From positions 7,292,501 through 7,356,500 of the forward strand of contig NC_134031.1 in the NCBI RefSeq assembly GCF_964204645.1: a stretch of 64,000 nucleotides of DNA, read 5' to 3'. The notes under the pieces are model-generated. The model was not told the DNA's origin and did not search any database. It saw only the letters and a program-made list of their open reading frames with translations. Below, one piece after another: positions 3,691-64,000 of this stretch (positions are counted from its first letter, which is position 1; each line of letters opens with the position of its first letter). Source of the DNA: Tubulanus polymorphus. Taxonomy: Eukaryota > Nemertea > Palaeonemertea > Tubulaniformes > Tubulanidae. The position numbers were made by a program, and so were the translations under genes.

Positions 3691-4957
3691 ACTAGGGGTC
3701 CAGGGACACCATGCCCACTTGGGAAGTGGTTTCAAATGCTCTACAATCTAACAATTTCAACATTCAACGCCCCTAGGTGACCATTTACAAAAACCAATGA
3801 CCTTGAAACTCACCACAATCATAGAACCTGTCAGCAGCTACGATTTTGTAATTGATTGTGATAACAAAATATGCCTCGTTACCAATTTAATATGGAAATA
3901 CTAAGTCATTCTACTATTCAACGCCCCCTGGTGACCATATTCAAAACCCAACGACCTCAAAACTCACCACAATCATAGAACATGTCATGAACTACAACTT
4001 TGCAATTGATCATGGTAACAAAATATGCCTAGGTACCAATATAATAAGGAAATACTAAGTTATTCTACTATTCAACGCCCCCTGGTGACCATATAGATAA
4101 ACTTATGTCCTTAAAACTCGCAAGATGATGTCATGAGCTACAACTTTGCAATTGATTGTGGTTACAAAATATGCATAGGTACGAATATAATAAAGAAATG
4201 CTAAGATATTGTATTATTCAACGCCCCCTGGTGGCCATATACAAAATCCAATTACCATGAAACTCACCACAATCATAGAACACGTTATGAGCTTCAACTT
4301 TCTAATTGATTGTGGTAGCAAAATATGCTTACGTATCAATATTATTTGGAAAAACTTTTTCCCACTTACGAATGAGTACTGGTGACACAAAGATGGCCGC
4401 CAATTGCGTCATAATTGGCTGATGAAAAATACCTATCTCAGGTATAAAACATCCCTTTCCAAAGAATACCCATCACAAATTGCAATGAGAAATGATAAAC
4501 CAGTAGGAAGCTACAGGACTCAGAATTTGGGCCAAAATTAACATTTTTGGGCACTAAAAAGGTCATAGGACGGCCATCTTGAGTCCGATCGACCCAATTT
4601 TTGTTATGTTGATGGGCCCTGGGGGAATTCACATATATCCGAAAGATCAAGGTAATTGATCAGAGCGTCTTCAAAATTTCCCTCAAAAAGTTCAAAAATG
4701 TGTAAAAAGTGCTGATTTTGACGAACAACAATGGCTGCCAGTCGGCCATCTTGATTCTGACGGGGCAGTTTTTGGGCTGAAGATGTGTCTAGGGTAGAAA
4801 CATGTGTAACCCAAATATCAAGACGTTACCTTGAAGCGTCTTCAAAACTTCCCAAAATAACTGGATTCCGTCTATGGACGGATGGACGGACGACGGACGA
4901 AAAGTGAACGCAATAGCCCTCTGGGACTAAAGTCCCAAGTGGGCTAAAAACCCTAGT
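3691..4957 (+). mobile_element. Non-autonomous repeat element, copy A, with CTCF-like tandem units
   Basis: The left end ACTAGGGG...GCCCACTTGGGA is mirrored at the right end TCCCAAGTGGGC...CCCTAGT, giving imperfect terminal inverted repeats. The first part is a tandem array of four ~150-bp units, each starting ATTCAACGCCCCCTGGTGAC (motif starts at 3769, 3923, 4077 and 4223). The second part (about 4330-4950) is unique and carries three GGCCATCTTG-type motifs and GACGGAC clusters before the right end. The same architecture recurs at 61815-63075, with partial copies at 52740-53115 (reversed) and 59757-60090. No transposase frame is present, so it must be mobilised in trans. The superfamily is unassigned. 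Confidence 0.75.
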
Positions 4958-5317
4958 TTCAAGCGAGGCGAATGGTTTACCGATTAGATCGGTATTGAGG
5001 AAGAAGTATACTCATACCAATCCGCGTTAGTACTGTGGATCATCAATCGGATACTGATAAAAGCAATTTGACTTATTACAAATAACGGCTGTCTGAGTTG
5101 GATTATGTATGTCTTAAAACATTTTACAACCCCTACATAATAAATAGATCAAAATCTCCGAAGATATTAATTTCAATTGATGAATATCTTATCTCGCGGA
5201 TTGATGTTTATAGAACATCCGAGTCCTCGTTGGAATGTGAGGCTTCATTGGTGGTGCGGCTTTGACAGAGTCCAAATATTTGTGTCCCTCACACGTAACT
5301 ACATACTACATTTGACA
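4958..5317. other. Intergenic 3' flank of VAMP4
   Basis: Short AT-rich spacer between the repeat element and the VAMP4 polyadenylation signal; nothing else recognised. Confidence 0.4.
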
Positions 5318-5323
5318 TTTATT
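5318..5323 (-). promoter_or_regulatory. Candidate polyadenylation signal of VAMP4
   Basis: AATAAA on the minus strand lies 8 nt downstream of the VAMP4 stop codon. That is unusually close and would give a very short 3' UTR; a more distal signal could also be used. Confidence 0.4.
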
Positions 5324-5331
5324 TCTGCGGC

Positions 5332-8150
5332 TTACGTTTTCTTCGTTTTCTGAATGATTATCGGAACTGAAAATAAAGAAATGGTTTTCATCGAATATCC
5401 ATAGATGCATGTTTGAAAACATGGTATGATTATGGTTCAAGATGCATTTTGTTTCAAAAACCTCAAACTATTTAGGCACAAAGGTTACATGTGGTACTCA
5501 AATACTGGTTTGTTAAGGCTTTTGACCTTTATCAAGGAAAGGTGCAAACTCACCGAATATAATCAATAAAACGATTATTATGATAGCGGCAACTAAAATT
5601 CTCATCTGAAAAGAAAAACAATATCAATCGTTAGTACACACTTGTATACCATAGCTTCATACCGAAAAGCCTCAGGGCACGTTTTTGTAAAACAGCAAAG
5701 TTAGCCCTGCAGACAAATCCCCGACTTGCTAAAATGAGGAACAATTGGAATTAATTTTCTCCAATTGACCCCCTCACCCAGAGTAGAATTTTCACCCTGT
5801 TAATTGAACTGGCCTTCGGTGAGTATACACAATTCTCACAAGATGATATAGTATGCTTTTCTTACCTTACATTCACGCCACCACATGGTCGTTTTCAAAC
5901 CTTTAGCTCTAACTCGGAACAGATCGGCATTGCTGGTTAAATTTTCTATGGAAAATAAAAACAACTGAATATACAATAGATGATCTCTAAGGCAAAATCT
6001 ACTATACTGAACATCCATTGATTAAACAGTGGACTAAACTAGTATACTTGTATATCTAGTTTATACGTCTGTAATTTAACATAAGATCAGATAATTGGAT
6101 CGGAGCTTTAAGTGGGAAAACACCACATATGTCACCCCGCTATGTTAAAAGTTACGGTAGCCATTTCGAAACATTGAGTAACATGATTTTCATGATAGCT
6201 GGACCGAGCCCATCTTAACTTTCAAGTTTGAAGAAGATTGCACCTCATATGAAGTGCGTAGAGCGCCAACGAGAAATCATATTTTCCTTGGTGGCTACTT
6301 AGTGATAGTGAGACACCTGATTTTGTAATCCAATTTGAAGAAAACCGCACTATATTCATAGCGTCTAGGGCACTGACAAGAAATTCAAAAAATCTGCAAT
6401 GGTGCCCATATTGGCACAGCTGGAAACTTGATTTTCAATGGTTCTAATCAATGAACTTACCCCGTTTCACCTATTTATATAAAAAGTAATCGCACATTAT
6501 TTGGAGAGTGTAAAACGCTAATGAGAGATTCCAGATGACCACCTTGGTGGCCATTGCGGGACAGCGAGAAACCTGATTCATGATGGTGTACTCTCATGTG
6601 TGTTGAGCGGGAAAAATGAGAGGGAAAAACGCACAGCACCCCTCTCCCTAGTGGGGTGACCTAATAATTACAATTTTGATTATACACTTTGTGTGGTAAA
6701 TCTTACCAGATTTATCTTGTAAATCCTCTAATCTATCACCTCGATCGAGAACTTTACCAATATTATCTTGCATAACATCAACGACTTCATCCACCTGACC
6801 TTGGAGTCTAAAATTATCAATATAGAATTGTGAATTTCGATGGTTTTTCCTGAAGCAACAACTTAATTTGAGCAACAACGGGATGGCTATTTTGCTCAAC
6901 ACTGAAATACCATGGTAGCAAATAAAATTATAGTGGAATCTCATTACAACGACCTCGATATGGCATAGAACTATAAGTGAACTATACATTTGCCTTTGCG
7001 AGCTTTGAAATTGATCAGCTCCCTAACCGTAGATGAACAATCAATTCTTGGCAATATTTTCAATAATATGTTCTCCCGAGCATTGAGGACAGCTTTTTTC
7101 AAGGCTCAGTTAAGCTTTAAGACTTAAAGAATAATGAAAAACGCTTAAAGGATTGGGACCGACAACCAGTCTACAAAATTTATCGTTTAAATCGCAAACG
7201 ATGGAGCGTTGATCAAAACACAAGGGGACAGCTGCTCAAAGGTCGGTTAAAGATAACCGGCGCATAAATACCATAGTAACAATGAACTAAACCAACTTTT
7301 GAGCAACTGGCCCGAGATTACTCGCGGTGCCTAGTGGATTTGTGAGGAGTTCGCTAAGAGATCTGTGGATGGTAACAATTTATCTGTCATTAGAAACCTA
7401 GAATAGGTAAATTGTAATAAATTCATTCTAGATATAATGATCGGCTATGACAAAAAAATTGATTTCGTCTTCTAAGTTTTGTTGTATCGATGTCCCACAG
7501 TGTGTATTTTAAACCCTCAATCACGACTTACCTTTTAATCTTATCATTCGGTCCTGGTTTAGCATTTTGTCCGCTGAAACGGGAATAGATAATCTTAAGT
7601 TTACTTTTTTTCAAGTAACGACATTGTAAATGAACTAATTTTAACTCAAGGGTCAAACTAACGGACTACAAAACTGAGTCCCTTACTGTGACGAAATTGA
7701 CGTTGTTTTGTGAATGATATTTGGCATTAGAGACGATCCATTGAAAAGACATGTACATAGGGATACAGTTGTAAATAGCATTGAAGTGTTTAATTCTACC
7801 CTCCCTGCTTGTGCACGTTATTAGTAGACACCTAACTTACTTCAGAAAGAAATCTTCTTCATCAGAATCACCATCCAACAAACTGACCTGCAGCAGAATT
7901 ATGAATTCGTTAGATAATGGTCTTTAGGGGCCTACTGAGCAACTGGTTCCCGAGTAACTTTATTCATCACTGGTAATACTGGGCTATGAAATGTAACATT
8001 ATTCACTAAAGGCAGGTCTCAAGCTTTTCAAGCATAAAAATTACCTAATTCAGGCTTAATCTAAAATGAATGTGATTTCATTACCTTTTCTGATTCTCTA
8101 GCTGATGTAAAATCTTGACCAGCAACGTGCCTCTTAAATTTGGGAGGCAT
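5332..8150 (-). CDS. VAMP4: VAMP4-like R-SNARE (vesicle-associated membrane protein 4), 7 exons
   Basis: Spliced from minus-strand exons 8085-8150, about 7841-7887 (47 nt, edges +/-2), 7532-7573, 6707-6807, 5866-5945, 5554-5605 and 5332-5366; all are GT-AG and all phases match, giving 140 aa (human VAMP4: 141). It starts MPPKFKRH, the signature VAMP4 N-terminus. Residues 25-37 (LLDGDSDEEDFFL) match the dileucine plus acidic-cluster TGN sorting signal. The R-SNARE motif spans about 54-106, with the zero-layer Arg at R74 (VLDRGDRLEDLQDKS), then MWWRECK and a C-terminal membrane anchor at about 113-134. The family works in fusion at the trans-Golgi network and endosomes with Q-SNAREs such as syntaxin 6/16 and Vti1a. 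The intron between the fourth and third exons holds a MITE. Identification is firm. Confidence 0.95.
7223..7313. mobile_element. Palindromic MITE in VAMP4 intron
   Basis: The left end CAGCTGCTCAAAGGTCGGTT is mirrored by the right end AACCAACTTTTGAGCAACTGG. A related copy is at 22051-22176. No coding capacity. Confidence 0.6.
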
Positions 8151-9104
8151 GGTTCATGGGTATCGTCTTCTAGCTTCTTGGTATTCTTATATTGCTACTC
8201 GACTGTTCCTGGCCTGTTGTCACCTCTACAAAATATGAAATTCATAGACGTGATGTGTAACATAATAAAGTTGGGGCTCCAAAATCAAAGCCAAAGACAG
8301 ATCACCAATATCAGGTCACTAACTAGGCCAAACTCGGGACCTCAGATGTGCTTTAATGGTAATCAGATAGCCCGCAGAGCTCATGTCCATGCGTGATTCC
8401 ATGTGACTTCACTGTCAAGATGGTTGCAACGCTATAACAGGTTTGTGCCTTAGGCCTATTCCAGTATCGCTTTAGAATTTGCTACCCACTATGTCAATGA
8501 GGTCTACTCTGGCATCCTATTAGTCAGTGTCACTATCAAAGCTAACCTGAGGGGGATGACTGTACTTTAGCCAGGTTTCCCTATAGTTTACCCAATTTGA
8601 CTAATAATAAGCCTACTAATACTACCCATAATCCATAGGCCTACCGGTAGTCACATTGGCGAAACTAGTGGGAAGTAAAACTATGTTGCGATAATGTAAG
8701 AAACAACAAAAACTCAGTTCACTGGACTGAGAACCTTAGTCAGTGGCAGTGGAAAATGGTTAATTGTGACCCCTGCTGCTGGTGCTCTGGTTCACGGGAG
8801 GTCATAATAGTACAATCACCTCTGAGACAACAAGCAAAAGACAATATCCGTGTATGATGAATAAACGCTAGAAATCTATTTATTATTATTTAAACTGGCG
8901 TTTACAATTTACAATCACATCTGCATCTACAAAGTGTCTAAACATCCAAAACTAAACAGCCGCTTTCAGGATCGGACTGGGTGAAGTCATCTCGGTAATT
9001 TTGGTCATATCGGTAATAAAGGCAAAGCCAAACGATGACGAATGATTGGCTTAACAACTCAAAACTGCCTGCACGCAGTCACCACAGGGGCTCGAAGTTA
9101 GACC
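8151..9104. other. VAMP4 upstream region
   Basis: Region 5' of the VAMP4 start codon. No upstream exon, TATA box or recognisable repeat could be supported. The promoter and 5' UTR of VAMP4 must lie here. Confidence 0.35.
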
Positions 9105-9304
9105 GAAGTTAGGGGGTGAACTACTGTGGTTTGTGAAAATATCCGATCGTGAAACTAAACCAGACGGGTTACTGACTAGGGTGAACTGCAGCTTAGATCA
9201 TCCAATATCCAAGGTACTATAATCATAAAAATAAATACCGGTAGTACCTAGTACCTTTATAGTATTGAATGATCTAACAGTTCAACAGTTCACCCCCAAA
9301 CTTC
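9105..9304. mobile_element. 200-bp MITE with 18-bp terminal inverted repeats
   Basis: The left end GAAGTTAGGGGGTGAACT (9105-9122) and the reverse complement of the right end GAAGTTTGGGGGTGAACT (9287-9304) differ at one base. The interior has a second inverted match (GATCATCCAATA / TATTGAATGATC). No open frame. Confidence 0.7.
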
Positions 9305-9393
9305 AAATACGAGACCCGGTGGACGCAGTTGAGTTGGTAGTTGCTCGTGACATCGTCAACTTCACGCAGTTGCATTAATTATAGACGGACGAC

Positions 9394-9410
9394 GGGCGCC
9401 TAAGGCGCCC
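9394..9410. repeat. Perfect GC hairpin
   Basis: GGGCGCC - TAA - GGCGCCC forms a 7-bp stem with a 3-nt loop, in an otherwise AT-rich region. A TGACGTCA (CRE-type) octamer lies about 100 bp downstream near 9502. Function unknown. Confidence 0.5.
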
Positions 9411-11106
9411 GGAGGACGTCCCTTTGATAAACGCGTATATGTGGATTCTAGAAAGTGTCTTTTTAACCGAATCTGACTTACTGACAAAGTCAGAAAAAAA
9501 TGACGTCAGAGTACGTCGGGTTTGAAGTTCATGGGGAAATCGAAAGTAGAATTACGTCACGCTAAAATCCGGCAGCGAAGTAACTAAAATCCGGCAACTT
9601 TTGGATCGGGTGATTTCAGAATGTATTTATTTCGTGAAATTTCGACCAAGATTGGATCTTTGAATCATTTAACAATCAACCGCGTTGATCGAACGAGTTC
9701 AAAATAGCTGAAATTCCCTTAGAAACCGGAGCGAATTCATAGTAACACGGGCCCGCTCCGGCATCGCGCACGGGTTCGAATCCCGGAGAATTACGCTCTA
9801 GCGCGCACGTACAGCAGTCAACCCCAGCCGCAGCACTGAAACATTTAATTATCTTATCAAATTAAATTACTCTAAAACAGCGATGATAGTTAAACTGAGT
9901 GCGTTAGACTGAGTCGTACGATTTGCTTAAAATTTCACGGCAGCGCGGCGGATTGCCGATTGGTCTGGCGCGAGCAGCAGCCCCAACCATCGTGGTCGGC
10001 AACAACATTTAGTCTCTGCCCCTTCTTTCACCAAATAAGGAATTCGGTACCGCTAGCTACGTGCACTGCTTATTTACTTGAGCCGTAGATACCCATACTC
10101 GATATTCCCGAAGGATTAGAAACAAATAAATATTTTTCGTAAGAGAAATCAATTTCTCTTTTTGTATTGACATTTGAATTTTTCTGCTGATAATTAATTA
10201 ATTCGATTCTTTCAGGCAGAAAATAATTTTCCGATTGATGCGTTTCAACGCGTCTTCCATTTTCCTCCGCAATTAAACAATTCGTAGTAATCTTCTTGTC
10301 CTTTTGTTTTCGAATGGTGCTACCGGTAATTTCTAAATTAACAACCAGGTCAAAATTCTTCAATCTTGCAAAAAACCAGTCTCAGTCTAACTCAGTTTCA
10401 CTTCAAAATGTCGGTTAAATAGTGGTTTTGCAAAGTGGTTTAAACCATTGAATAATTCTTGATACACTATAATCTAAATCAAAATAGTTTTTAGCAGTGA
10501 TAAACAGTGCCACGGGTAAGCCATATACCAAAAATTAATATCGATAAATAATTCAGTTGGGAAATTGGGTCAAGTCTTTTTCTGGCAGAATATTGAATTT
10601 CATTATCTTAAAAGCCCAAATTTTCTATAACCAGAAATTAATCAAACCTTAGAGTTACAGTTTCATCGTCTTTCCCCCCTCCCCCAACCCTCTGGCATTA
10701 TTTTTCATTTTGCCAAGTTTTATTTAAGAATTGATATGCTTTGGGCCCACAATTTCAATATGAAATAAAATTGATCAAAGTTACTTTCCAGTTCCATGGG
10801 ATTGACAACAATTAATTTTCTCTGTGTTCCTAGTCACAGAAAATATTTTGAGTGTATTTCGTTATACACTCAAAATACACAATACATACACAATACACAA
10901 TATCAAAATACACGAAGTTGTTTTCGAATCGAAATGATTTGTTAGTATAAAAAATTACGAAGTGGCTACTCGTACGGACCCGTACGAATAATTCCGTAGG
11001 CTATTCGTACACACCCGTCGGATAACTTTGGAATTATGTGTACGGGAAGGGATAGGGTTAGGGTAAGGTGAAGCTATATGTAGTTAAAACATTCGACCGA
11101 CTGTCA
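9411..11106. other. Intergenic with a tRNA-like B-box relic
   Basis: Mostly featureless. At about 9770-9786 there is CGGGTTCGAATCCCGG, a perfect tRNA T-arm/B-box, flanked by AGCGAATT and AATTACGCT, which can pair like an acceptor stem. No D-arm or anticodon arm can be folded, so it is at most a tRNA or SINE relic. A hairpin GTACGAATA/TATTCGTAC lies near 10983-11011. Confidence 0.35.
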
Positions 11107-11180
11107 GCGAGCTCGGTGGTCTAGTGGTATGATGCTGCGCTAGTAATTTACTGGCCCGGGTTCGAATCTCGCTTTATCCG
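11107..11180 (+). ncRNA. tRNA-like sequence (tRNA pseudogene or SINE head)
   Basis: It has a clear A-box (TGGTCTAGTGG) and B-box (GGTTCGAATC) at tRNA spacing, and the 5' part resembles tRNA-Pro. The anticodon arm around CGCTAGTAATTTACTGG does not form a stem, and the T-stem has a mismatch, so it is not a functional tRNA. Most likely a decayed tRNA gene or the head of a tRNA-derived SINE. Confidence 0.5.
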
Positions 11181-13752: not shown

Positions 13753-14790
13753 TCACAGTGAAGAGGATTTGACGAGCTTAGAGCCTCCACGACACATGAG
13801 ATAACCTCTCACTTCCGCCGAGGAAAACACATAAACTAGAAAGTTCAACACGTAATTCATCTCCCATAGAATATTAGTAACCGGACCGTAAATATTCTCT
13901 CTCATCCACAGCCAATCAGGCCACACGAGCATACATGTTATCACGATAGTACTCGGTGTCAAACATATAACCAATGTCGAAGTAACCGCTACTAGTAATT
14001 TAGTGACCTTGAGAGCGTTAGCGCGCTTCTTTCTTTCAGATGGATCCGCGCTAGCCAACTCGGAGAGATTCTTGCGCCTGAGTAATGCGGTGATTATGGA
14101 CGCGTTGCAAGCCGTGATTAAAGTCATGGGCAAAATAGAAATCAACGCCGACGACGTTAAAGCGTTTGCAGCTTGGGTTTTTACGTCGACATAACAACCC
14201 AATATCGGGTGGAACTCTAACTTAAAACTGGGCATCAAAATGTACGTCATAACCAGTGCTGCTACAAATAGCGTCGAAACGGTAATAATCGTTGCCGCTT
14301 TTCTCGTGCACAAACGAAAACCAAAAACCGGGAAACAGACCACGATCAATCGTTCAACGCTGATCGCCGAAACCAACCAAGAACTCTGGACAGCTAATGT
14401 AAGACTGAAGTACGTGGCCGCGGTACTGGTCGCGAAATTCACCGGTTTAACTACCAACGGACCACCGAACCATAGACTGGCCAAATTCAACCAGATAACC
14501 AGACGCTGGACCACGTTACCCACATCAACCAATGATAGAGCTGATAGGTAAACGGTGTACGAATGCCTGCGCATTTTCGTGAAAGTCATGATTACAAATG
14601 ATAAAATGTTTGCCGCGAGACCGAAAGTCGAAAGAACGAATGATCCGATAAACTGAAGCCAGGCTTTCCACATCGGTCCGTCCAGTAGCGATTGCGCGTA
14701 TACGTAGTATAAATCACAGTAATGCCCGAGTTGGTAGACACCGACACTTTCTTCTTCGCCACCAAGAGTTACATTTCCGCTTAACGCCAT
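13753..14790 (-). CDS. Intronless rhodopsin-like GPCR, FMRFamide-receptor-like
   Basis: 345 aa from an ATG in good context (AACATGG). Seven hydrophobic segments are visible: TM1 with N61 (GLAANILS), TM2 with D89 (SLVD), TM3 ending E146-R147-L148 in place of DRY, TM6 with CLTP (276-279) in place of CWxP, and TM7 with NFLVY (316-320) in place of NPxxY. An N-glycosylation site (N6-V-T) precedes TM1. The usual TM3 cysteine (expected near residue 122) is absent, although C199 in the second extracellular loop is kept. This combination is common in lineage-expanded invertebrate peptide GPCRs; the ligand cannot be told. A candidate TATA box lies about 300 bp upstream. Confidence 0.88.
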   Translation of the reverse strand: MALSGNVTLGGEEESVGVYQLGHYCDLYYVYAQSLLDGPMWKAWLQFIGSFVLSTFGLAANILSFVIMTFTKMRRHSYTVYLSALSLVDVGNVVQRLVIWLNLASLWFGGPLVVKPVNFATSTAATYFSLTLAVQSSWLVSAISVERLIVVCFPVFGFRLCTRKAATIITVSTLFVAALVMTYILMPSFKLEFHPILGCYVDVKTQAANALTSSALISILPMTLITACNASIITALLRRKNLSELASADPSERKKRANALKVTKLLVAVTSTLVICLTPSTIVITCMLVWPDWLWMRENIYGPVTNILWEMNYVLNFLVYVFSSAEVRGYLMCRGGSKLVKSSSL

Positions 14791-15689: not shown

Positions 15690-16380
15690 AAGGGAAAATG
15701 GTGTCCAGGGTGAGCAGGTGCAGGGTCTGGGCTGAGGGTCTACAGGGTCCAGGCTGTGAAGGTACAGGGCCAGGCTGAGAGGGTACACAATGTCCAGGCT
15801 GAGGGCTTACAGGGTCCAGGCTGTGAAGGTACAGGGCCAGGCTGAGGGTACACAAGGTCCAGGCTGAGGGTCTACAGGGTCCAGGCTGTGAAGATACAGG
15901 GCCAGACTGAGAGGGTACACAATGTCCAGGCTGAGGGCTTTCAGGGTCCAGGCTGTGAAGGTACATGGCCAGGCTGAGGGTACACAAGGTCCAGGCTGAG
16001 GGTCTACAGGGTCCAGGCTGTGAAGGTACATGGCCAGGCTGAGGGTACACAAGGTCCAGGCTGAGGGTCTACAGGGTCCAGGCTGTGAAGGTAAAGGGCC
16101 AGGCTGAGGGTACACAATGTCCAGGCTGAGGGTCTACAGGGTCCAGGCTGTGAAGGTACAGGGCCAGGCTGAGGGTACACAAGGTCCAGGCTGAGGGTTT
16201 ACAGGGTCCAGGTTGTGAAGGTACAGGGCCAGGCTGAGGGTACATAAGGTCCAGGCTGAGGGTCTACAGGGTCCAGGCTGTGAAGGTACAGGGCCAGGCT
16301 GAGGGTACACAAGGTCCAGGCTGAAGGGAATTCAGAGTTCAGGCTGAGGGTCTACCAGGGTCCAGGCTGTGAAGGTGCGA
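15690..16380. repeat. 65-bp minisatellite made of three ~22-bp subunits
   Basis: GGTCCAGGCTGTGAAG recurs at about 15748, 15815, 15880, 15947, 16012, 16077, 16142, 16207 and 16272 (period 65-67), with a diverged last copy near 16361. Within each unit, three subunits begin GGTCCAGGCTG or GGCCAGGCTG, so the array grew from a ~22-bp ancestor. The long Pro/Ser-rich frames on the minus strand (15649-16050, 15807-16115) are repeat shadows: 65 is not a multiple of 3 and the frame rotates. Confidence 0.95.
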
Positions 16381-18873: not shown

Positions 18874-20088
18874 CTAAGATTTCTGACTAGATTTCATTTT
18901 ACAAAAAAAGCAATCAGTAAACATTTTAATAGATTGATTTCTGAAAACTTTCATTGTTCCGGTGTATATAAAGAAATTGACACAAAATACAAACTGTCGA
19001 AATGTTTGTAGGAATTTTTCTAACTCGAACCATAAAGTGCCGAGAAAGAATGTAGAATGTGGAAATGAACTGGCACCGATAATAATTCCATGATTTCTAT
19101 AAAGCACTGGTTGAATGGCGGACATTAAGTTGTAAATGCATTTAGCTGCAGCTTGCGGAAAAACTAGTAAAACATACACAATAACTACAACTAGAAGAGT
19201 TTTACTGGCTGAAGATTGATGACGATCTGTTCTCTTCGCTCTCAGCTCAGATCTCTTATTGCGTAATACAGCAGTTAACACTGATAATATTACAATCATT
19301 ACAGAAGGAAAGATATCTTGTAGAAATGTTTTTACAGCTTTTATTTGTGAGGTTTGGGATGAAGGCATATATTGGAATAGATGTCCACATGCAAATCTGT
19401 CATATGTTTCATTGTATCTACGAGATTTGCTGAGATAAACCTTGTAAGTGATTGCAGAATCCAAGTTCATGAAATACGCCCAGAAGATGACAGAACCTAC
19501 TGCAATTTTACGCCGAGTGACGGTGAAATGTTTCATGTGAAAGAAAGGAAAACGAATAGAAACAAATCTCTCGAGAGCAATCACTATAACTGTGTAGTTT
19601 GATACAGATATTGCCTGGTTATAAAATAGGTTTGAAAATATACACGAAGGAAACACTCGATTGGGCAGATAGTGGAAATAGTAATAGAAATAGTAAAGTG
19701 ATGGACATAGTTTACTGTGTTTAGTGAATGTCAGGTAAGTTACGTCACATTCTGTATAAAATCCTAGATGATAAACAACGAACCCTTTCAAAAATTCAGG
19801 GAAGTTCCTAAGCTCAAACAAGACGACAAGTTGATCTGAAAACGCGAGAGTTATGAGATAGGGGAACGTGCAACGAACTGACCGATATCTGCGACACTTT
19901 ATCAGTAAAATCATTGTCAGTAAGTTAAACACACTTCCCGGCGGAAGCAAGAACACATTTCTGAATATTCTGTTATATTCATTAACGAAGTTGATAAATC
20001 TTCTGAAAGCTATGATATAACCCGGTGTCTTCACAGCAGTGCGGTATATTCTACGAGTTGTGGTGGTGATAGTGGTAAAATTATCCAT
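18874..20088 (-). CDS. Intronless divergent rhodopsin-like GPCR
   Basis: The open frame extends to 20142, but its first codon there is TTG; the first ATG is at 20088, giving 404 aa, and there is no upstream ATG before the in-frame stop. In ATG-based numbering, TM1 carries N55 (GSVFN), TM2 D85 (AFSD), TM3 C149 and E173-R174-F175, extracellular loop 2 C234, and TM7 NFFIY (371-375). N-glycosylation sequon N-F-T sits just after the start. The first extracellular loop is very long (about 55 residues) and rich in Tyr/Phe, which is odd. The C-terminal tail is short and basic. Overall it is a peptide-type class A receptor of an expanded family; the ligand is unknown. Confidence 0.82.
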   Translation of the reverse strand: MDNFTTITTTTRRIYRTAVKTPGYIIAFRRFINFVNEYNRIFRNVFLLPPGSVFNLLTMILLIKCRRYRSVRCTFPYLITLAFSDQLVVLFELRNFPEFLKGFVVYHLGFYTECDVTYLTFTKHSKLCPSLYYFYYYFHYLPNRVFPSCIFSNLFYNQAISVSNYTVIVIALERFVSIRFPFFHMKHFTVTRRKIAVGSVIFWAYFMNLDSAITYKVYLSKSRRYNETYDRFACGHLFQYMPSSQTSQIKAVKTFLQDIFPSVMIVILSVLTAVLRNKRSELRAKRTDRHQSSASKTLLVVVIVYVLLVFPQAAAKCIYNLMSAIQPVLYRNHGIIIGASSFPHSTFFLGTLWFELEKFLQTFRQFVFCVNFFIYTGTMKVFRNQSIKMFTDCFFCKMKSSQKS

Positions 20089-20142
20089 GAAAAGAACAGA
20101 ACTGTTTGACACGACAATCTGTGTTGTTACTGCTTCCCCCAA

Positions 20143-40814: not shown

Positions 40815-41828
40815 CTACATTCGCTTTCCAAAATAACGACAACTCAAACACCAAAGAAGCGTTCGACCGAACCCTCTTCGGATGCCTAGGTATACAAATA
40901 GATTTATCATCGCATTTATAGCGTGTAGTAATTGTCCTGGATGATATGGTCGATAGTTCAAATGAATAAATATTGCTGGCAATATTGTATTTATTAATGT
41001 TATCGAATATTCGACGAAGAATATCAGATTAAGCGCTAAAATCATGGATGTAATTTGCCGACCTTGATTGCTGTTTGTTTCTTGTTGTTGTTCACCTTGC
41101 TGGCTGATTTTGAGTCGTTCTTGGGCTGCCTTTCGGACCAATATGAACATGTGTATATTACTTATTAGAACGATAAAACCAGGTATTAACTTCAGCACAA
41201 CAGTACCGATGAGGAAATCGTAATAAAGGGCATACTTTCTGTTGGATAGTAGTAGGTGTCTCTGGCTGACGTGTTCACATGCTTCACCAGAGTTAACCCG
41301 ATATGTTTGTACGTCCCACAAAGTTGGAATATCGAATAAAACTGTGAGAAAATAAGCCAAAACTGTGACACGTCGTGCAACATTTATTGTAGCGAATTGT
41401 CTCGCCGAAAATGGAAATCTAATAGCGATATAGCGATCAATACTCATTACGAAAAGCAACCAAGCACTCGTCGAAGTAGACATCTGAAATGCCGTGTCTA
41501 CATACACGTATAGGTTAAGATAGAATTTCTGGTAAGTCCGACTGAATTTGATGTATTCGAATGGAAAATCTCTTGCGAGCATCATCAACTCTCTTCCAAA
41601 TACTCCAGTTAAACAGTTGATCAAGTCAGCTACTGCCAGAGCCTTGAGATAGAATACGCTGCTAATTCCTTGAAGTTGCATGACGTTCAGTACCATCAAT
41701 GAAAAGATGTTGGCGACTATACCGATAAAGTAGATGAAAGCTCGAACTATACCCATTATGGCACCGTACGAGTATGTAGCAACTTCGCCATTGCAGTAAC
41801 GACCGCAACATATAATCGTTTCATTCAT
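40815..41828 (-). CDS. Intronless rhodopsin-like GPCR, FMRFamide-receptor-like
   Basis: 337 aa starting at ATG (MNETIICCGRYC; sequon N2-E-T). TM1 has N40 (IVANIFSL), TM2 D68 (AVADL), TM3 ends in a canonical D131-R132-Y133 followed by IAIRFP, and TM7 has NLFVY (309-313). TM6 (ALNLIFFVEYSITLI) lacks the CWxP motif. C184 is present in extracellular loop 2, but no cysteine is at the expected TM3 position (~107); N-terminal cysteines C7, C8 and C12 might substitute. The third intracellular loop is Gln-rich. Class A peptide receptor of an expanded family; ligand unknown. Confidence 0.88.
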   Translation of the reverse strand: MNETIICCGRYCNGEVATYSYGAIMGIVRAFIYFIGIVANIFSLMVLNVMQLQGISSVFYLKALAVADLINCLTGVFGRELMMLARDFPFEYIKFSRTYQKFYLNLYVYVDTAFQMSTSTSAWLLFVMSIDRYIAIRFPFSARQFATINVARRVTVLAYFLTVLFDIPTLWDVQTYRVNSGEACEHVSQRHLLLSNRKYALYYDFLIGTVVLKLIPGFIVLISNIHMFILVRKAAQERLKISQQGEQQQETNSNQGRQITSMILALNLIFFVEYSITLINTILPAIFIHLNYRPYHPGQLLHAINAMINLFVYLGIRRGFGRTLLWCLSCRYFGKRM

Positions 41829-53892: not shown

Positions 53893-54727
53893 GGTCTGGG
53901 CGCTCTCCCCCAGAAAATTTTCTAAATTTGATGCAATTTTAGAGCTATCTGGGCTTTTCTGTTGGCACCTGGGAGCCTATGCGATTCCTGTATCCTAGAC
54001 ATGTATTACATAGCCAAAGATAAGAGTCGAAAAGGAAGAGTTGTCTAGGCCCGGCCCACCCCCCATGAAAGTCACCGGAAAACATCAACTATATTTTTGA
54101 AACACCCAATTACGGATGGTTTAATTTTGCAAAAAAATTTACTTAAACAAAGAAAAACTTTAAAAATTTTAGAAATTTTGAGGGGGCGCTCCTCCTGCTC
54201 CCCTCTTGAATCCGCCCTGGCCATTTTCTTGTTCTGTGTCAAATGTCACTGTATCCTTTCAGCCACAGGATTCTAACGTTTCAACATGAAACCTCACACA
54301 ATGAGTCTCCCTAACTCGGGAAGATCGAATCAAATCTATTTGATAAATTGAATTAAGTGATAATACGGCTCTAAGATATGGCTTTTAGTGCATTCCCCCA
54401 ATTGAAGCCCAATAGATACGCTAGTAGCTGAATGGAAAAAAAAACGATTTATAGATTTCTGTATCACAATACATCTATGTTTTGGATCGATTAAAATTTC
54501 AGCGTTTCATACACAATGTTATTTTATAGTTATAAAACAGAGGCGGCTGCAATTCACGAATTCAGTATAGTATTTTTTTTATATTTCAGGGCCGCGTGAA
54601 AAGACCCACCAACAGGCTCAAGTGCATTATAGCATTAAATAGTTCCAGCAAAGACTTATCACATTGGACTGGTATTTGGAATTAATCCGCCAATATTGGA
54701 CTGATTGAACGTCGTCCGATTCTACTC

Positions 54728-55100
54728 GTCGACAATGTCTACAGCCCCGATTGTCGACCGATTCTAATCGTCGACAATGTCTGCAATCCTGATTGTCGAC
54801 CGATTTTACTTGTCGACAATGTCTACAACCCCGATTGTCGACCGATTCTACTCGTCGACAATGTCTGCAATCCTGATTTTCGACCGATTTTACTTGTCGA
54901 CAATGTCTACAACCCCGATTGTCGACCGATTCTACTCGTCGACAATGTCTGCAATCCTGATTTTCGACCGATTTTACTTGTCGACAATGTCTACAACCCC
55001 GATTGTCGACCGATTCTACTCGTCGACAATGTCTGCAATCCTGATTTTCGACCGATTTTACTTGTCGACAATGTCTACAACCCCGATTGTCGACCGATCA
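54728..55100. repeat. 42-bp minisatellite in 84-bp higher-order dimers
   Basis: GTCGACAATGTCT occurs at 54728, 54770, 54812, 54854 and onward, exactly every 42 bp for nine monomers. Two alternating monomer types (one with TGCAATCCTGATTTTCGACC, one with ACAACCCCGATTGTCGACC) define an 84-bp higher-order unit. It contains CCTGATTGTCGACC, also found in the reverse complement of the 45-bp array at 600-873. The 108-aa frame at 54777-55103 is a repeat artefact. Confidence 0.95.
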
Positions 55101-56703: not shown

Positions 56704-57207
56704 TTCCCTGTGTTCTTGTGAATGGCAGTAAGACCAGAGCGTTATCTTGACAGAACCAAGTAGTAGCTAGCCCAGCAAATATTCCAAATTTTAGCTAATC
56801 TACTTTCATAGGAATTTTAAAATTTATATGACACGAAGATTGTAAAGTTCTGATGACAGACATAGGAGAAAATGAAATACAATTCACGCAGAAAATGCGT
56901 ATGCAAAATAAAATTAATTTCCTGTGTTTTCCCACAAAATAAATCAGTTCCAGAATCTTGTGGAAAACCCTGGAGGAGAAAAAAAGATGTTACGGCTTCT
57001 ACTGAAGCCTGGTGGGAGTTATAGCTACTGGTATTTCTGTAGGGTAAACTACTCATCCTGTGCCATGTAAAATATATTTCTTAACAAAATTTTCTTAACA
57101 TAGATAACATATATTTGCCACATAAAACAATTCTACAAATTGGAATCGACAACAAAAATACATTTGAACTGTGAAGAATACCGGTTGGTTTAAGCCGTAT
57201 TAAATAA

Positions 57208-60200
57208 TCACATGGATTCTGGTGAATTTTCTGCGTGACTAGTACGTTCTATATGATTGACAGCTGTTTCCAGACGGTGGACAGATCTGGAGCATCCCAG
57301 TAGTGCGATCATTTCCGCTACGCCAGGTCCTTGCTGTAAAAATTCATCAGAGAAATACATATAATAGAACTCGTCATAAATGAATCCGATCAACATTTTA
57401 ATGACAAACAATTCAAAAATTCTAGCTGGATCTAAAATTTGATATTGAAATAGGGACCCGTTCCTTTTATTCATTTGATCGATAGATTTGATCTTATTTT
57501 TTGGAATCCTTACTAAAACACCACACCTGAGGAATGAGAAAGGGGAAATGACCTCAATACGTAAAACATAAACGGAATAACCGATTTGATTTTACAGTCA
57601 AAGCTCGTTATAACGCCAGCCCCGGGACCGTCAAAATCTTGGCGGTATAACGAAATGATGATCATGAGAGTTGACATAGTGTACACAACATGACTATTAA
57701 CCGAATCCAGAATTAGTCATTAGTTGATCTTAATTTAGGAAGTGTAAAGGTCTTAGCTCATTTCATTTAGATGATAGAAAAAATAATACAGTAGATGTGT
57801 GATACTGCCAACAAAATGTATCAATTCTTAACCAAAAGACTGGAAACGTTGGTAATTGACAATGAGTTTGAATAGGACTTCTAGGATTTCGTTGGAGTTA
57901 TGGCGGAGGGTGAGAGTGGTATAACGAGACCTATTTACATACATTTAATACCAAATGAACTGCGCACAAGGAAATTATTGGCGATAGGTGAATTTGGCGG
58001 TATAATGGTTGGCGGTATAACGCGCTTTGACTGTATAAGTGATGAAGCTATCTCAACAAATTTCCTTGACTTTTCCCTGATTTAAGCTTTTTACTAAATC
58101 CCGTAACTTTTCCCTGATTTCCAGGTTAAGTGGCTACCCTGTAAAAATGAGAAGAAAAAATGGACCTCGACAACATTTACCTCTGACTTGACCATTTATC
58201 CGACTTACACAATGGTTAAGTGGATTGTGCTTTAATGAATCTTTAAATTGAATCGAAATGAAAAATCAGAATATTTACCTTCAAGCCACTGATTACTGTT
58301 CGTAATAATTTCATATAATCGCCGACTTTCAATTTGTGTTGTTTAGGGATTTGCTTCAACGCTGCACCAATATTCGTTTGTGTGAATGAATTGTTCAGGT
58401 CTTGTAGAGCAGATATTGTCATCCGAAGAGCGGAATTCAGATTGTCTTTTGATTCACTTGATACGACTGCCTTGCTATCGAAAGAAGGACTGTGCCAGAC
58501 AAACCGAAATTCCGACTTCAATAAGTCTTCGAGAAGGTGGATTCTCAACTGAAATTTTTAGATTAGACATGATAATATTTAGGATATTACTTATTTTCTG
58601 TACGGGCATCTAGGAAGAGGCGAAAAACATCAACCTCTAGTGGGAGGATATCTCAGAGATAAGCAAATGTGTAATGGGAGAGTCACGATGTACAGCGTAT
58701 GAAACACCAATTGACTGATTGTATTCAGTCACCACAATCAAACTACTTCAAAATTTTCTGGGTTCTCCCGATAAAAAGAAAACTATCCCAGTGATCTGAT
58801 GAACGACACAATCAAAGACCAGAGAGTTGTCATCTTGCCAGATCCATTATTACGCTAGCCCCCAGGGTCCAGTTCCACAGTTCGTAGTTAAGATTTGACC
58901 CTGAGTTAACTCCTTGAAAATGAACTAATTTTAACTCAGAGTTAACTCTAACTCACAACTGTGAAACTGGGTCCAGTATTCTTTACTTTCAGCTGATATA
59001 TTTTTACAGGAATCTAAGCTAAACCCCGCGCACCGAAGATTTTATAGTTTCAATGTTCTAATGACAGAGATGAAGAACACAATTTGAGTGCGTAAGAGAA
59101 TAACGCCAATATTTTCCAGATTTATCAAATTTCATTGAATTCCCTGTGTTTTCCTTGAGAGAAATCAGTTCCCTATGGGCTCTGTTTTCCAGAAACAGAG
59201 CTAGAAAGTTGTGGTCACCCTCATATTTGTTAGTATTTCCGCCGTGGAATACAGCGTTTTAATTTGATGTGTATAGACAAAGAAAGCTGTTACCTTGGAC
59301 CCATACATTGTATATCCATTTTCAAACTTTAGTAAAATGAGAACTCCCCCCCGAAATTTGTAAGAAAATCAATGAGGTTCATTGTGAAAATATTTCTAAA
59401 ACGCATTGAGGAAAGTGGGATAAAACTTACAAGGCTCCAATCTAGGACACAATGTAAATATTCCTGAGAGAGAAGATCGTCACCAGATGTCAACGTTTTG
59501 CTCGTAATCAGTAAACTGTGTAATCTGTCGACTAGCTGTTGACGATCGCCGATATTCTGCAATTTTGTCGTCAGGTGAATTCGATTGAACTCATTAATAC
59601 GAGCGACTTCGAGACGAGTAGACTGTGTTCTGACTTTCTCCAATGAAAACTGTAAGAAATAGTTCACCATATAATGTGATCACCAATGATTTTCTGATTT
59701 GATAACTCGAAGTCGGTTGCCAAAAAAATTGTCAGTTGATATTATCTCAGCTAATTTCCATAACAAGGTGCCCAGGGACACCATTGCCCACTTGGGTAAT
59801 GGTTTGAAATTCTCGACAATCTGACAATATCAATATTCAATACCCCTAGTGAACATGTACCAAAACCAATGACCTTCAAGACATGCCATGAGCTACATTT
59901 TTGGCATGTTACCAAAATATACCTAGGTACCAACATAATATGGATATACAAAAGCTATTTAACGCCCCCTGGTGACTATATACAAAAACCAATGACCTTG
60001 AACATACAACAATCATGAGCCACTACGTTGCAATTGATTGTAGTTACAAATATGCATCGGTACCATTGAATATACAAAATAGACAAATTGTGTAAAATCT
60101 ACATAATAGACCAATGGATAGACGAATTGTATAAAATCTAATATTCAATTCCAAGTGATGCCCTAATTGTGTACCAAGTTTTTAAAAAATCTGTCAAGAA

Positions 60201-61129
60201 TTGCAGCCTTGTCATTTTTCATGACGGCCCCTGGTGGCCATAGTTTAAATCAAATCAATCCGATCATAAATAGGGTACTGCCTCATAAGTGATGCCCTAC
60301 TTCTGTAAAAACTTCTACTTCTACTTCTGTACAAAAATCAGTTGACGATTGCGGCCTCAAGGCTGTTAATGTTGTTTTTCATTTCTAATTTGTATAGAAT
60401 CAACTCAATTTTGAATAGGGTTGTGCCCTAAATAATACCCTAGTTGTGTGCGAAACTTGAAAAAATTGGTAAATAGGAATGTACCTCCGACCATTTCCTA
60501 CTTGTGTAAGTTTGAAAAAAATTTCTCGAGAAATGAAGGCTCTATCGTGCTACCATAGTTTTCCAATGCAGCCCCCTGGTGGCCACAATTTAAACTTTAG
60601 CAGCCTGAGTTTAAATAGGAATGTACCTTCAACCATTTCCTACTAGAAGTTTGAAAACAAGAGCCCCAAGGGGCACTATGGCCAGCCTGTCAGCTTTTCA
60701 TAAAATGGCAAATGATGCATTCTGTGGGTTAAATTTGTCCAAATACACTCCCAGCTCAATAGACTTGTCAATCCCAGGCTAATGAATTACACAATTCAAT
60801 CGTGGTTTCATAAGTAGCACAGACAACAGCGACTGGTGCTGGCAGGAACTAATACCTCAGATAAATCTTTTCCCTTGGTCTTAGTGATTTGAATGCGGAA
60901 TAGAATTGAATTTTCTGAAATTTGCTCAATAAAACAAAATTGAATTGGATTTGCTGTTTTACCTTGTTTGATAAAGTAAAATTGAATTGGATTTGATATT
61001 TTTTTTTCAAAATCAAATTTGATTGAATTTGCAGTTTGAGCACATGGCTAATTACCATATCAAGGTCATCCATCCGATTTGAGAAAAAGCTATTTTTCCC
61101 GGACTTTGCACAAATGTCAATGATATTTT
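57208..61129 (-). CDS. EARS2: Mitochondrial glutamyl-tRNA synthetase, last four exons (5' part beyond window)
   Basis: Minus-strand exons 61056-61129, 59431-59649, 58279-58548 and 57208-57333, all GT-AG and in phase, give 229 aa and a TGA stop. The order matches the class I bacterial-type GluRS C-terminal half: ENIIDICAKSGKN (end of the catalytic/stem-contact region), EFNRIHL (the conserved 'FNRLHL' helix of animal EARS2), then the anticodon-binding domain with LKVGDYMKLLRTVISGLK and QGPGVAEMIALLG, the hallmark 'GxxxKLLR..LSG...GP.v.EmI..LG' ending. The enzyme attaches glutamate to mitochondrial tRNA-Glu. The Rossmann fold, HIGH and KMSKS-type motifs are not in the window; the next upstream exon must lie beyond 64000. 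Its introns hold two MITEs and repeats. Confidence 0.92.
57595..58031. mobile_element. Tc1/mariner-like (pogo-type) MITE with TA target sites
   Basis: Left CAGTCAAAGCTCGTTATAAC; reverse complement of the right end CAGTCAAAGCGCGTTATACC; each is directly flanked by TA. 437 bp, no transposase. It lies in the last EARS2 intron. Confidence 0.85.
58865..58974. mobile_element. 110-bp palindromic MITE
   Basis: The left GGGTCCAGTTCCACAGTT and right AACTGTGAAACTGGGTCC ends are inverted repeats. The interior (GAGTTAACTC..TTAACTCAGAGTTAACTC) is also self-complementary, so the whole element folds back. It lies in an EARS2 intron. Its terminus is the likely source of the 20-bp minisatellite at 13455-13625. 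Confidence 0.8.
59757..61020 (+). repeat. Composite of CTCF-motif-bearing repeat units
   Basis: 59757-60090 is a shortened copy of the left half of the 3691 element (GCCCAGGGACACCA...GCCCACTTGGG, then units). 60110-60660 has diverged ~130-bp units reading TGTACCAAGTTTGAAAAAAA...GAAGGCTCTAT...CAATGCAGCCCCCTGGTGGC. The region lies in the EARS2 intron 59650-61055. No coding capacity. The minus frame 60849-61184 overlaps the EARS2 exon at 61056-61129, but only that exon is real. Confidence 0.65.
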
Positions 61130-61814
61130 CTGTAGTGCAAATAAAAATATTCCTCTCAAAAACCAAATCAACTAAAGATTTCACAGAAATCGATATTGAA
61201 ATACAATTTTAGATCTTAAAATAAAACCCAGAAATAAAACAGTACCCGGTTGACGATACCGCGGGTTCACGTGAACACCTGCTGATCTCTGCGGCTAAGC
61301 CAATCATAGAGGAGTCTTTGCTTTCTGATTGGCTTTTTAAAACAGATATTTTTGCAATCAGATTTTCGCGAAAAAGCTCATATAAATGTTAACAAGGCCC
61401 TCTTTCAAAATTCAGCTTCATAGGGGTTGGAGAATGCTCCAATGAATGATTTGTATGAATATATGCTCAGTTGCACAGACAAAGAGCCTTAGCTCTGGAA
61501 ACCATGTCATTTAAATTCGCTCCATTTGTATAGTAATAGGCTCAGCCTACAGCTGGCCTAAAAATTTCTCGGGAAATTAAGGCTCTATTGTGCTAACATC
61601 GTTTTCCAATGCAGCCCCCTGATGGCCACAATTCAAAGTTCAGCAACCTGAATTTATATTGGAATGTACTTCAAACCATTTCCTACCTGTGTACCAAGTT
61701 TGAAAAAAATATCTCGAGAAATGAAGGCTCTATCGCACTAACATCCCTTTATAACCACAATCTAAACCAGCAACCAAAATTTTAATAGGAACCATTTCCT
61801 TGTACCAAATTTGA
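61130..61814. repeat. Upstream intronic repeats of EARS2
   Basis: Contains two more units of the 'CTCGAGAAATGAAGGCTCTAT' repeat (61560-61640, 61690-61750), one with a CTCF-like motif at 61614. The expected preceding EARS2 exon was searched for by eye and not found. Confidence 0.5.
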
Positions 61815-63070
61815 ACTAGGGGTCCAGGGACACCATGCCCACTTGGGAAGTGGTTTCAAATGCTCAACAATGTAACAATTTCAATATTCAACGCCGCCTG
61901 GTGACCATATACAAAAACCAATGACCTTGAAACTCAACACAATCATAAAACATGTCAGCAGCTACGATTTTGTAATTGATTGTGATAACAAAATATGCCT
62001 CGTTACCAATTTAATATGGAAATACTAAGTTATTCTACTATTCAACACCCCTGGTGACCATATTCAAAACACAATAACCTTGTAACTCACCATAATCATA
62101 GAACATGTCATGAACTACAACTTTGCAATCGGTCATGGTAACAAAATATGCCTAGGTACCAATATAATAAGGAAATACTTAGTTATTCAACGCCCCCTGG
62201 TGACCATATAGAATAAATAATTTCCTTAAAACTCACCACAATCATAGACGATGTCATGAGCTACAACTATGCAATTGATTGTGGTGACAAAATATGTATT
62301 GGTACAAAATATAATATAGAAATACTAAGATATTGTATTATTCAACGCCCCCTGGTGGCCATATACAAAAACCAATGAACTTGAAACTCACCACAATCAT
62401 AGAACACGTTATACGCTACAACTGTCTAATTCATTGTTGTAACAAAATAATAATATGCTTAGGTATCAATATAATGTCGAAAAACTTTTTCCCACCTACG
62501 AATGAGTACTAATGACACCAAGATGGCCGCCAATTGTGTCATAATTGGCTGATCAAAAATACCTGTCTTAGGTATAAAACATCCCTTTCCAAAGAATACC
62601 CATCAGCAATTGCAATGAGAAATGGCAAACCAGTAGGAAGCTACAGGACTCAGAATTCGGGCCAAAATTAAAATTTTTGGGCACTTAAAAGGTCCTAGGA
62701 CGACCATCTTGAGTCTGATCGACCCATTGTTTGTTATGCTGATGGGCCCTGGCCCTGTTCAATTATATACAAAAGATCAAGGTAATTGATCAAGGCGTCT
62801 TCAAAATTTCCCTCAAAAAGTTCAAAAACGTGTAAAAAGTGCTGATTTTGGCTGCCAGTCGGCCATCTTGATTCTGACAGGGCCAGTTTTTGGACTGAAG
62901 ATGTGTCTAGGGTAGATACATGTATAAACCAAATATCAAGACATCACCTTGAAGCGTCTTCAAAACTTCCCAAAATAACTGGATTCTGTCTACGAATGGA
63001 CGGACGGACGTACGGTCGATGGACGAAAAGTGAACGCAATAGCCAGCTGGGACTTAAGTCCCAAGTGGGC
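61815..63070 (+). mobile_element. Non-autonomous repeat element, copy B, with CTCF-like tandem units
   Basis: Collinear with 3691-4957: left end ACTAGGGGTCCAGGGACACC, four ~150-bp units (motif starts 61893, 62046, 62192, 62347), the unique block with AAGATGGCCGCC, and the right end GTCCCAAGTGGGCTA. It interrupts another repeat: the flanks TGTACCAAATTTGAA (left) and ACCTCGAGAAACGCTAACTT (right) rejoin into the sequence seen intact at 60500-60570. The insertion is therefore nested and younger than that repeat. Confidence 0.8.
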
Positions 63071-64000
63071 TAAAAACATACCTCGAGAAACGCTAACTTC
63101 ATTTTCCAATGCGACCCCTGGTGACAACAAATCTAACATCAGTTTAATTTGATTCCATGTTCAACAAAATATGCCAGCCCTACTCAACGTCTGCTTAAAA
63201 TTCATGATCCTAGTTGAAATTCTTCAGTAGTTATAGATGTTTATAATTATGCAGCAGTAGCGCCAGATAGACACATCAAAATCTTTACGCCGCCCCTACT
63301 AACGTTGAGCAGGAGCATAAAAATGGCAAATTATGAGGTAACTACAGGCTTCGAAATTCAGGCAAAAATTACCTTTTTAGACACAAAAAAACATTACACG
63401 ATGGCTATTTTGCATCCGATCAAGCCAATCTATCTCATGCTGATGGGTGAGTAGGTACATGCAATTAGTACCAAACACATTTTGTCAACACGGAAATATT
63501 ATATATTTTCAATACTCAACATTCCTGCTGAACAAATACAGAACGCTTCAATACATATATGGATCATTTATGTTAAAATAGAACATTCATGTTAAACTAA
63601 TGGTTTTCAATTCCACTCATTCTTTTCATTGGCAAAGCTGAGCGAACAGAGGATTTACAAAATAATATCTTGTTACCCATTTGTTTAAAAACCACGTAGG
63701 CAATTGAGAGTTTGACATCATAAAAGGCACCAGCAGCAAAAGGGGAATAGGGAAACACTCTCTGGTTCAATTCCAAATACCGGTAAGTACGTAATAGACT
63801 AGAATACTCATAACTCATCCATAGTTCGACAAAACTGTCCGTATATAGCAATCTATCTTAACTAGCGTATATGTGTTGTCTTTTGGACCGGGCTTAAGCA
63901 TCTTCAAAATGTTATAAAAAAATTGGGATCTAGTACCCAAAGCAAAAATGCTTAGGCACAATTTGTCTTTTTCTAGGTTTTTGATCCCAACAAGTAGTTA
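63071..64000. other. Repeat remnant then featureless sequence to window end
   Basis: 63071-63130 is the right flank of the interrupted repeat and ends in ACCCCTGGTGAC. 63130-63500 continues loosely repeat-like. No EARS2 exon is recognised; the 84-aa minus frame 63597-63851 has no domain. Confidence 0.4.

What the first reader, a model, noticed from the sequence alone, without database searches (positions are those of the whole stretch)
3769..63126. A transposable-repeat family that carries arrays of CTCF-like motifs in one orientation
At least 12 sites in two repeat clusters share a core whose minus-strand reading, TGGCCACCAGGGGGC or TGGTCACCAGGGGGC, closely matches the CTCF consensus. Starts: 3769, 3923, 4077, 4223, 59964, 60226, 60571, 61614, 61893, 62046, 62192, 62347. 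All point the same way, and within elements they recur every ~146-155 bp. Other bases of the units have drifted more than this core appears to have. In mammals, B2 SINEs disperse CTCF sites; an invertebrate DNA-repeat equivalent with four sites per copy would be new to me. The motif match is seen; binding is inference.
Basis: partly seen in the sequence, partly recalled or inferred. Interest (0 to 1): 0.8.

Follow-up and report, generated by a model that had tools for sequence, protein, structure and literature searches.

The report
Jumping repeat carrying CTCF-like site arrays
A rolling-circle-type jumping element in this invertebrate genome exists in about two thousand copies, each usually carrying four same-facing copies of a sequence that matches the animal's own recognition motif for CTCF, a DNA-folding protein; the motif match is well supported, but binding is untested and individual copies show no sign of being preserved for a function.

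Summary
All 12 listed sites exist (16 matches with up to 3 mismatches in the window, 0.46 expected). Genome-wide there are 7,028 sites with at most 1 mismatch, against 5 for the reversed control. Nearly all lie in one family, A: about 1,260 bp, four units of about 154 bp, with the structure of a non-autonomous Helentron (HINE). The genome holds at least 2,169 3' ends. Sites 60226, 60571, 61614 and 63113 belong to a different, older tandem-repeat family (B/C) that shares only the 15-bp core with A.

The genome encodes a CTCF orthologue; base-contact residues of fingers 3-5 equal human ones, fingers 6-7 are close. Non-A DNA is strongly enriched for the same motif (659 vs 3; 889 vs 10), mostly at unique sites, and A units fit it.

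'Core drifts less' is only partly right. Across unit types it is the best-conserved block. Within copies, post-insertion mutations hit it at the neutral rate (O/E 1.24, CI 0.92-1.64). Copies look like decaying transposon DNA, not host-maintained sites. Binding is untested. The shared orientation is a by-product of tandem repetition. New variant of a known kind.

The parts
3690..4950 (+). Family A copy 1: complete HINE-type element (5' module, four units, 3' palindrome module)
   Evidence: Shared ends in most of 30 copies with unrelated flanks; sequence
3706..3728 (+). 5' module of copy 1: subterminal inverted repeat CCCACTTGGG with complementary repeat (CCACTT..AAGTGG)
   Evidence: Read; pairs with CCCAAGTGGG at the 3' end
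3762..4356 (+). Array of four ~154-bp units in copy 1; cores at 3769, 3923, 4077, 4223
   Evidence: Tandem Repeats Finder; core scan; unit profile
4920..4950 (+). 3' end of copy 1: palindrome GGGACTAAAGTCCC, inverted repeat CCCAAGTGGG, terminus GGGCTAAAAA
   Evidence: 2,169 genome copies of this end at <=3 mismatches vs 1 control
59766..60075 (+). Degenerate family A fragment with core at 59964 (approximate limits)
   Evidence: Sequence; core scan
60091..60345 (+). C-type unit(s) of family B/C with core at 60226 (approximate limits)
   Evidence: Matches C-type units of L049/L067/L068
60400..60670 (+). B-type unit(s) of family B/C with core at 60571 (approximate limits)
   Evidence: low copy number of flank
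61555..61813 (+). B-type units with core at 61614; interrupted by copy 2 of family A (approximate start)
   Evidence: the B unit text resumes at 63077
61814..63076 (+). Family A copy 2: complete element inserted in a B unit
   Evidence: Ends as in 30 copies
61880..62449 (+). Array of four units in copy 2; cores at 61893, 62046, 62192, 62347
   Evidence: Tandem Repeats Finder; core scan
63077..63150 (+). Continuation of the interrupted B unit with degenerate core at 63113

Best explanation
Family A is a non-autonomous Helentron-type (HINE) rolling-circle transposon whose internal array of about four ~154-bp units carries one CTCF recognition sequence per unit, all in one orientation. Transposition has spread about 2,000 or more copies and about 7,000 near-consensus sites through the genome. 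Most likely the host CTCF can bind these sites where chromatin permits. Copies then decay neutrally, so the number of sites reflects transposition and decay, not host selection. Shown: element structure, copy number, motif match, CTCF orthologue with conserved core fingers, independent genome-wide enrichment of the same motif, neutral post-insertion decay. Inferred: actual binding, any insulator or loop role, and that the core helps the element propagate.
For: HINE layout and shared ends (compared with PMC7492417); 2,169 3' ends; 7,028 cores vs 5 control; Helitron_like_N genes present. CTCF orthologue, contact residues of fingers 3-5 identical to human and 6-7 close. Same motif enriched outside family A: GCGCCMYCTRSTGG 659 vs 3, HCGCCAYCTRSTGG 889 vs 10; 47 of 60 sampled sites unique, none family A, with the extra A expected from the vertebrate motif. 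Tolerance for A at the last motif base and at the first covers all A units. Neutral decay: O/E 1.24, CI 0.92-1.64.
Against: No occupancy data. The 15-mer shared by A and B/C includes CCA, which the genome's unique sites do not prefer, and B/C lack the favoured C before GCC, so CTCF alone does not explain the shared core. The core CpG is lost in about 10% of units. The element looks absent from 6.3 Mb of C1 where unique CTCF-like sites exist. A Helentron partner with the same ends was not sought. The enriched non-A motif is assigned to CTCF by motif and ZF likeness only.
Confidence: 0.65

Rival explanations
1. The core is a cis element of the transposons themselves (Rep binding, replication, or maintenance/exchange of the tandem array); its likeness to a CTCF site is incidental.
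For: The 15-mer is shared by two tandem-repeat families with no other homology and includes CCA, which unique CTCF-like sites do not prefer. B/C carry a base disfavoured by the genome's own motif. Oyster HINE satellites with dissimilar monomers also share short conserved boxes (PMC7492417).
Against: Family A units fit the genome's own CTCF-like motif at every tested position. The same motif is abundant in non-repeat DNA, so incidental likeness is a coincidence of about p=1e-7 to 1e-9 per site.
Confidence: 0.2
2. The sites are host-exapted insulators or loop anchors maintained by selection on individual copies.
For: Core well conserved between unit types and in source lineages. TE-borne sites are known to be co-opted in mammals (e.g. 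PMC6979391, listed).
Against: Private mutations hit the core at or above the neutral rate. Copies look confined to chromosome interiors on C1. A minority of exapted copies is not excluded.
Confidence: 0.06
3. The CTCF-like core arose by chance in the founder and was merely amplified.
For: Copies evolve neutrally in the core; the conserved 25-bp block between unit types is only borderline as a post-hoc scan (P=0.058).
Against: A chance match at p=1.2e-7 to 1.5e-9 in a 1.26-kb element is improbable (about 3e-4 to 4e-6 per element), and an unrelated family carries the same 15-mer. Lineage-level variants are among the fewest in the core window (rank 6 of 133).
Confidence: 0.09

Closest known systems
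Cg_HINE elements and Pearl (non-autonomous Helentrons of bivalves; PMC7492417)
   Same: Subterminal inverted repeats, left complementary repeat, right palindrome, internal short array of 140-180-bp satellite-like units, high copy number; divergent unit families sharing short conserved boxes.
   Different: No CTCF motif was reported there in the passages read. Here the (GGAC)n-like microsatellite lies in the right module (about 4869-4900), not the left. Sequence relation not tested.
Mammalian B2 SINEs and other TEs that disperse CTCF sites (Schmidt et al. 2012, cited; PMC7156512, PMC6979391, listed)
   Same: A lineage-specific transposon carries a CTCF motif in its consensus and spreads it in thousands of copies.
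   Different: Rolling-circle-type DNA element, not a retrotransposon; about four sites per copy in tandem; no occupancy data; invertebrate host.
Placozoan Mutator and ctenophore transposon-associated loop anchors (PMC12221973)
   Same: Invertebrate transposons associated with chromatin-architecture motifs.
   Different: Those animals lack CTCF; other element classes and factors; loops were observed there, not here.
CTCF-bearing tandem repeats such as mammalian DXZ4 (own knowledge, not looked up)
   Same: Tandem units each with a CTCF site in one orientation.
   Different: Single-locus macrosatellite with ~3-kb units, not a dispersed transposon.

Membership tests
HINE (non-autonomous Helentron) | Subterminal inverted repeats in left and right modules, with a complementary repeat in the left | tested here: met
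   CCCACTTGGG / CCCAAGTGGG; CCACTT..AAGTGG in the left module
HINE (non-autonomous Helentron) | Palindrome / stem-loop at the 3' end | tested here: met
   AGCCCGCTGGGACTAAAGTCCCAAGTGGGCT in most copies, read by eye; folding energy not computed
HINE (non-autonomous Helentron) | Internal short tandem array between the modules | tested here: met
   Mostly 4 units of ~154 bp, some copies 2-5 or more
HINE (non-autonomous Helentron) | No target-site duplication; insertion at a fixed short target | tested here: inconclusive
   Flanks show no evident duplication by eye, nearly always an A before ACTAGG; no empty sites examined
HINE (non-autonomous Helentron) | Left-module microsatellite | tested here: not met
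   The GGAC-type microsatellite lies in the right module; this feature varies between elements, so I treat it as secondary
HINE (non-autonomous Helentron) | Autonomous Rep/helicase partner with matching ends | not tested
   Helitron_like_N genes exist in the genome (58 matches), but their ends were not compared
TE-dispersed CTCF sites (B2-like in effect) | Motif in the family consensus, matched to the host's CTCF | tested here: met
TE-dispersed CTCF sites (B2-like in effect) | CTCF occupancy on the copies | not testable with these tools
   No ChIP/CUT&RUN data available here
TE-dispersed CTCF sites (B2-like in effect) | Host CTCF orthologue present | tested here: met
Host-maintained (exapted) CTCF sites | Core evolves more slowly than flanks after insertion | tested here: not met
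   Private mutations O/E 1.24 (0.92-1.64), 345 assigned units

The most novel reading that the evidence does not exclude
A rolling-circle transposon that exploits host CTCF: same-facing CTCF-site arrays are kept in its active source lineages because CTCF recruitment helps the element (open chromatin, escape from silencing, or targeting). It thereby supplies most of the potential CTCF sites of an invertebrate genome, and an unrelated repeat family has arrived at the same core.
Probability: 0.25. Interest if true: 0.85.

Novelty: new variant of a known kind. Interest (0 to 1): 0.6.

Why it matters
Whether CTCF organises chromatin through oriented sites outside vertebrates is open (echinoderm boundaries show motifs without orientation, PMC13317027; annelid sites lie mostly at promoters, PMC7854359). 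A genome with about 2,000 natural insertions, each a same-facing CTCF-like array, plus decayed copies as controls, is a ready-made experiment: one CTCF CUT&RUN and one Micro-C map would show whether site number, strength and orientation affect contacts. It would also extend TE-driven spread of CTCF sites from mammalian retrotransposons to an invertebrate rolling-circle-type element.

Tried and rejected
Chance motif in the window: rejected by shuffles and reversed-pattern controls. Host-selected sites: rejected for the bulk of copies by private-mutation analysis. The apparent deficit of core mutations in the first tally (3.3% vs 5.9%) came mainly from subfamily-diagnostic positions elsewhere and vanished when only private mutations were counted. 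Common descent of A and B/C units beyond the core: no alignable homology. The idea that GTGACC cores (units 1-3) are poor sites, as the vertebrate matrix implies, was dropped because the genome's own sites tolerate A there. Prior report: no relevant paper on CTCF plus Helitron/HINE in the held library; the core letters occur in two unrelated papers only. The species could not be identified: no COX1 in the assembly. A viral-contig search with the CTCF protein found no relative. One search failed (file name) and was redone. Not tested: termini of Rep-coding elements, exact target preference, gene proximity of the copies.

Full report
CHECK OF THE OBSERVATION. Every listed start carries the core GCCCCCTGGTGRCCA on the + strand with 0-2 mismatches; the window has 16 matches at up to 3 mismatches, against 0.46 expected. 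Tandem Repeats Finder reports the two four-unit arrays at 3762-4356 (period 154) and 61880-62449 (period 153). In the whole genome (268 Mb, 77 contigs; the window is C7:7292501-7356500) the core occurs 7,028 times at up to 1 mismatch, 3,648 forward and 3,380 reverse, against 5 for the reversed pattern. With the vertebrate matrix MA0139 (counts recalled from memory, so a lead rather than a database result) unit-4 cores score 25.0 bits (p=1.5e-9) and GTGACC cores 20.0 bits (p=1.2e-7); the window has 19 sites at p<=1e-5 against 0-3 in Markov sequence.

ANATOMY. Thirty copies (one of them the window's own) were fetched by similarity to the 3' domain, that is, without reference to the core. Most share ends: 5' AACTAGGGGTCCAGGGACACCATGCCCACTTGGGAAGTGG and 3' CGCTGGGACTAAAGTCCCAAGTGGGCTAAAAA, with unrelated flanks and typically about 1,264 bp between (in a few copies my anchors were not found). 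The 5' module holds a subterminal inverted repeat with a complementary repeat, the 3' module a palindrome next to the matching inverted repeat, and between them lies a short array of ~154-bp units, modally four. This is the layout described for HINEs, non-autonomous Helentrons, in oyster (PMC7492417). Copy number: 2,169 3' ends at up to 3 mismatches, 1 in the control. Rolling-circle machinery exists in the genome: 58 Helitron_like_N matches, several in long open frames. A shared terminus with an autonomous element was not tested.

TWO FAMILIES. Only 49 exact-core sites in the genome have both neighbouring bases unlike family A, and of 30 fetched, 24 were family A units with mutated flanks. The rest are one site with no resemblance to either family (L071) and a second tandem-repeat family, B/C (unit about 145 bp in C), to which window sites 60226, 60571, 61614 and 63113 belong. 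B and C are homologous to each other; A has no detectable homology to either outside the core. Copy 2 of A (61814-63076) sits inside a B unit, so B is older at this locus.

IS IT CTCF-LIKE FOR THIS ANIMAL? The genome encodes a CTCF orthologue (C3:3430379 and 3431265, 62% and 52% identity; translations; best PDB match human CTCF). By the standard -1/2/3/6 reading, contact residues of fingers 3, 4 and 5 are identical to human, finger 6 is QNSA against QGTM, finger 7 RTDI against RSDV, while fingers 1, 2, 8 and 9 differ. That predicts the same core motif with freer flanks. The prediction was tested on sequence that is not family A. GCGCCMYCTRSTGG occurs 659 times against 3 for its reversal. Of 60 sites fetched, 47 resemble no other sampled site and none is family A; the 47 show a preference, not imposed by the pattern, for A just before the motif (27/47), as in the vertebrate motif, and none for the CCA after it. 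HCGCCAYCTRSTGG occurs 889 times against 10, mostly ACGCC, the A-unit form. Replacing the last G by A, C or T still gives 1,174 against 17; about 30% of those listed have the family A letters, the rest are mostly T or A. Replacing the C before GCC gives 490 against 47, mostly T. The genome's own motif is therefore close to [AG]CGCC[AC][CT]CT[AG][CG]TG[GAT]. Family A units (ACGCCCCCTGGTG[AG]) fit it throughout; B/C units have the disfavoured A or G before GCC.

SELECTION. Units were sampled without reference to the core, including 60 regions from copies taken in genome order along C1: 347 units, 345 assigned to one of four unit types. Counting only private, i.e. post-insertion, changes at non-CpG positions, the core shows 49 against 39.5 expected from base-matched positions: O/E 1.24, 95% CI 0.92-1.64. 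So the bulk of copies decay neutrally. At the older level the core is well kept: between the four unit types, 1 of the first 25 positions varies against 40 of the other 122, a run that is borderline as a post-hoc scan (P=0.058), and variants shared by at least 3 units are few in the core window (15 against a median of 26, rank 6 of 133; GC-only permutation P about 0.04, all-position P 0.07). Together with the same 15-mer in an unrelated family, this suggests that source lineages, not host copies, keep the core; the statistics are modest. The site's CpG is the fastest-changing part (about 10% changed). In 45 copies of that C1 sample with recognisable units, 87 of 142 units still match the genome's own motif; 38 of 45 copies keep at least one and 6 keep four.

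INTERPRETATION. Most likely this is a HINE-type transposon whose satellite-like units contain a host-readable CTCF site, spread by transposition and then left to decay. Whether host CTCF occupies the sites, and whether the element gains from it, is unknown. Uniform orientation is an automatic property of a tandem array. Elements look absent from the first 6.3 Mb of C1, where CTCF-like sites outside family A do occur, which argues against a broad role near those genes.

LITERATURE. TE-borne CTCF sites are established in mammals; placozoan and ctenophore loops are associated with transposons but not with CTCF (PMC12221973). CTCF motifs mark echinoderm boundaries without orientation (PMC13317027) and annelid promoters (PMC7854359), and are reported at cephalopod TAD borders (PMC10658181). 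The held library gave no relevant report of CTCF motifs in Helitrons/Helentrons or of this core sequence; most subscription papers are not covered, so absence there is weak evidence of novelty.

Noticed in passing
G000:C1:1-6340000 (outside the window): Family A looks absent from the first 6.3 Mb of C1 (first exact core 6342921, first exact 3' end 6347275; about 100 of each follow) although 9 GCGCCMYCTRSTGG sites lie there. Insertions seem confined to the chromosome interior.
   Followed up: partly
L076/L081/L090/L108/L121; L084/L085/L087/L088; L083/L089; L114/L127: Four further repeat groups, unlike family A, carry a CTCF-like GCGCC[AC][CT]CT[AG]GTGG site.
   Followed up: no
G000:C3:408093-732245 (outside the window): Eight or nine GCGCCATCTGGTGG sites spaced about 15-55 kb apart, perhaps a large tandem or gene-cluster unit.
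   Followed up: no
window 45727 and 55827: Two strong vertebrate-matrix CTCF hits outside families A and B/C (24.4 and 21.5 bits).
   Followed up: no
window 13753-14790, 18874-20142, 40815-41828 (minus strand): Three long open frames whose translations look like seven-transmembrane GPCRs by eye.
   Followed up: no
window 1-370, 15721-16369, 54711-55098: Strong minisatellite arrays with periods 26, 22/65 and 42/84 bp.
   Followed up: no
G000:C8:11297621-11620905 and C10 near 3.2 and 10.9 Mb (outside the window): Dense clusters of C2H2 zinc-finger matches to the CTCF query, suggesting expanded zinc-finger gene arrays.
   Followed up: no
family A unit positions 7-8: The core's CpG changes about 10% of the time, C to T at 9.6% against 3.1% for other C's, as if methylated in the germ line.
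   Followed up: partly
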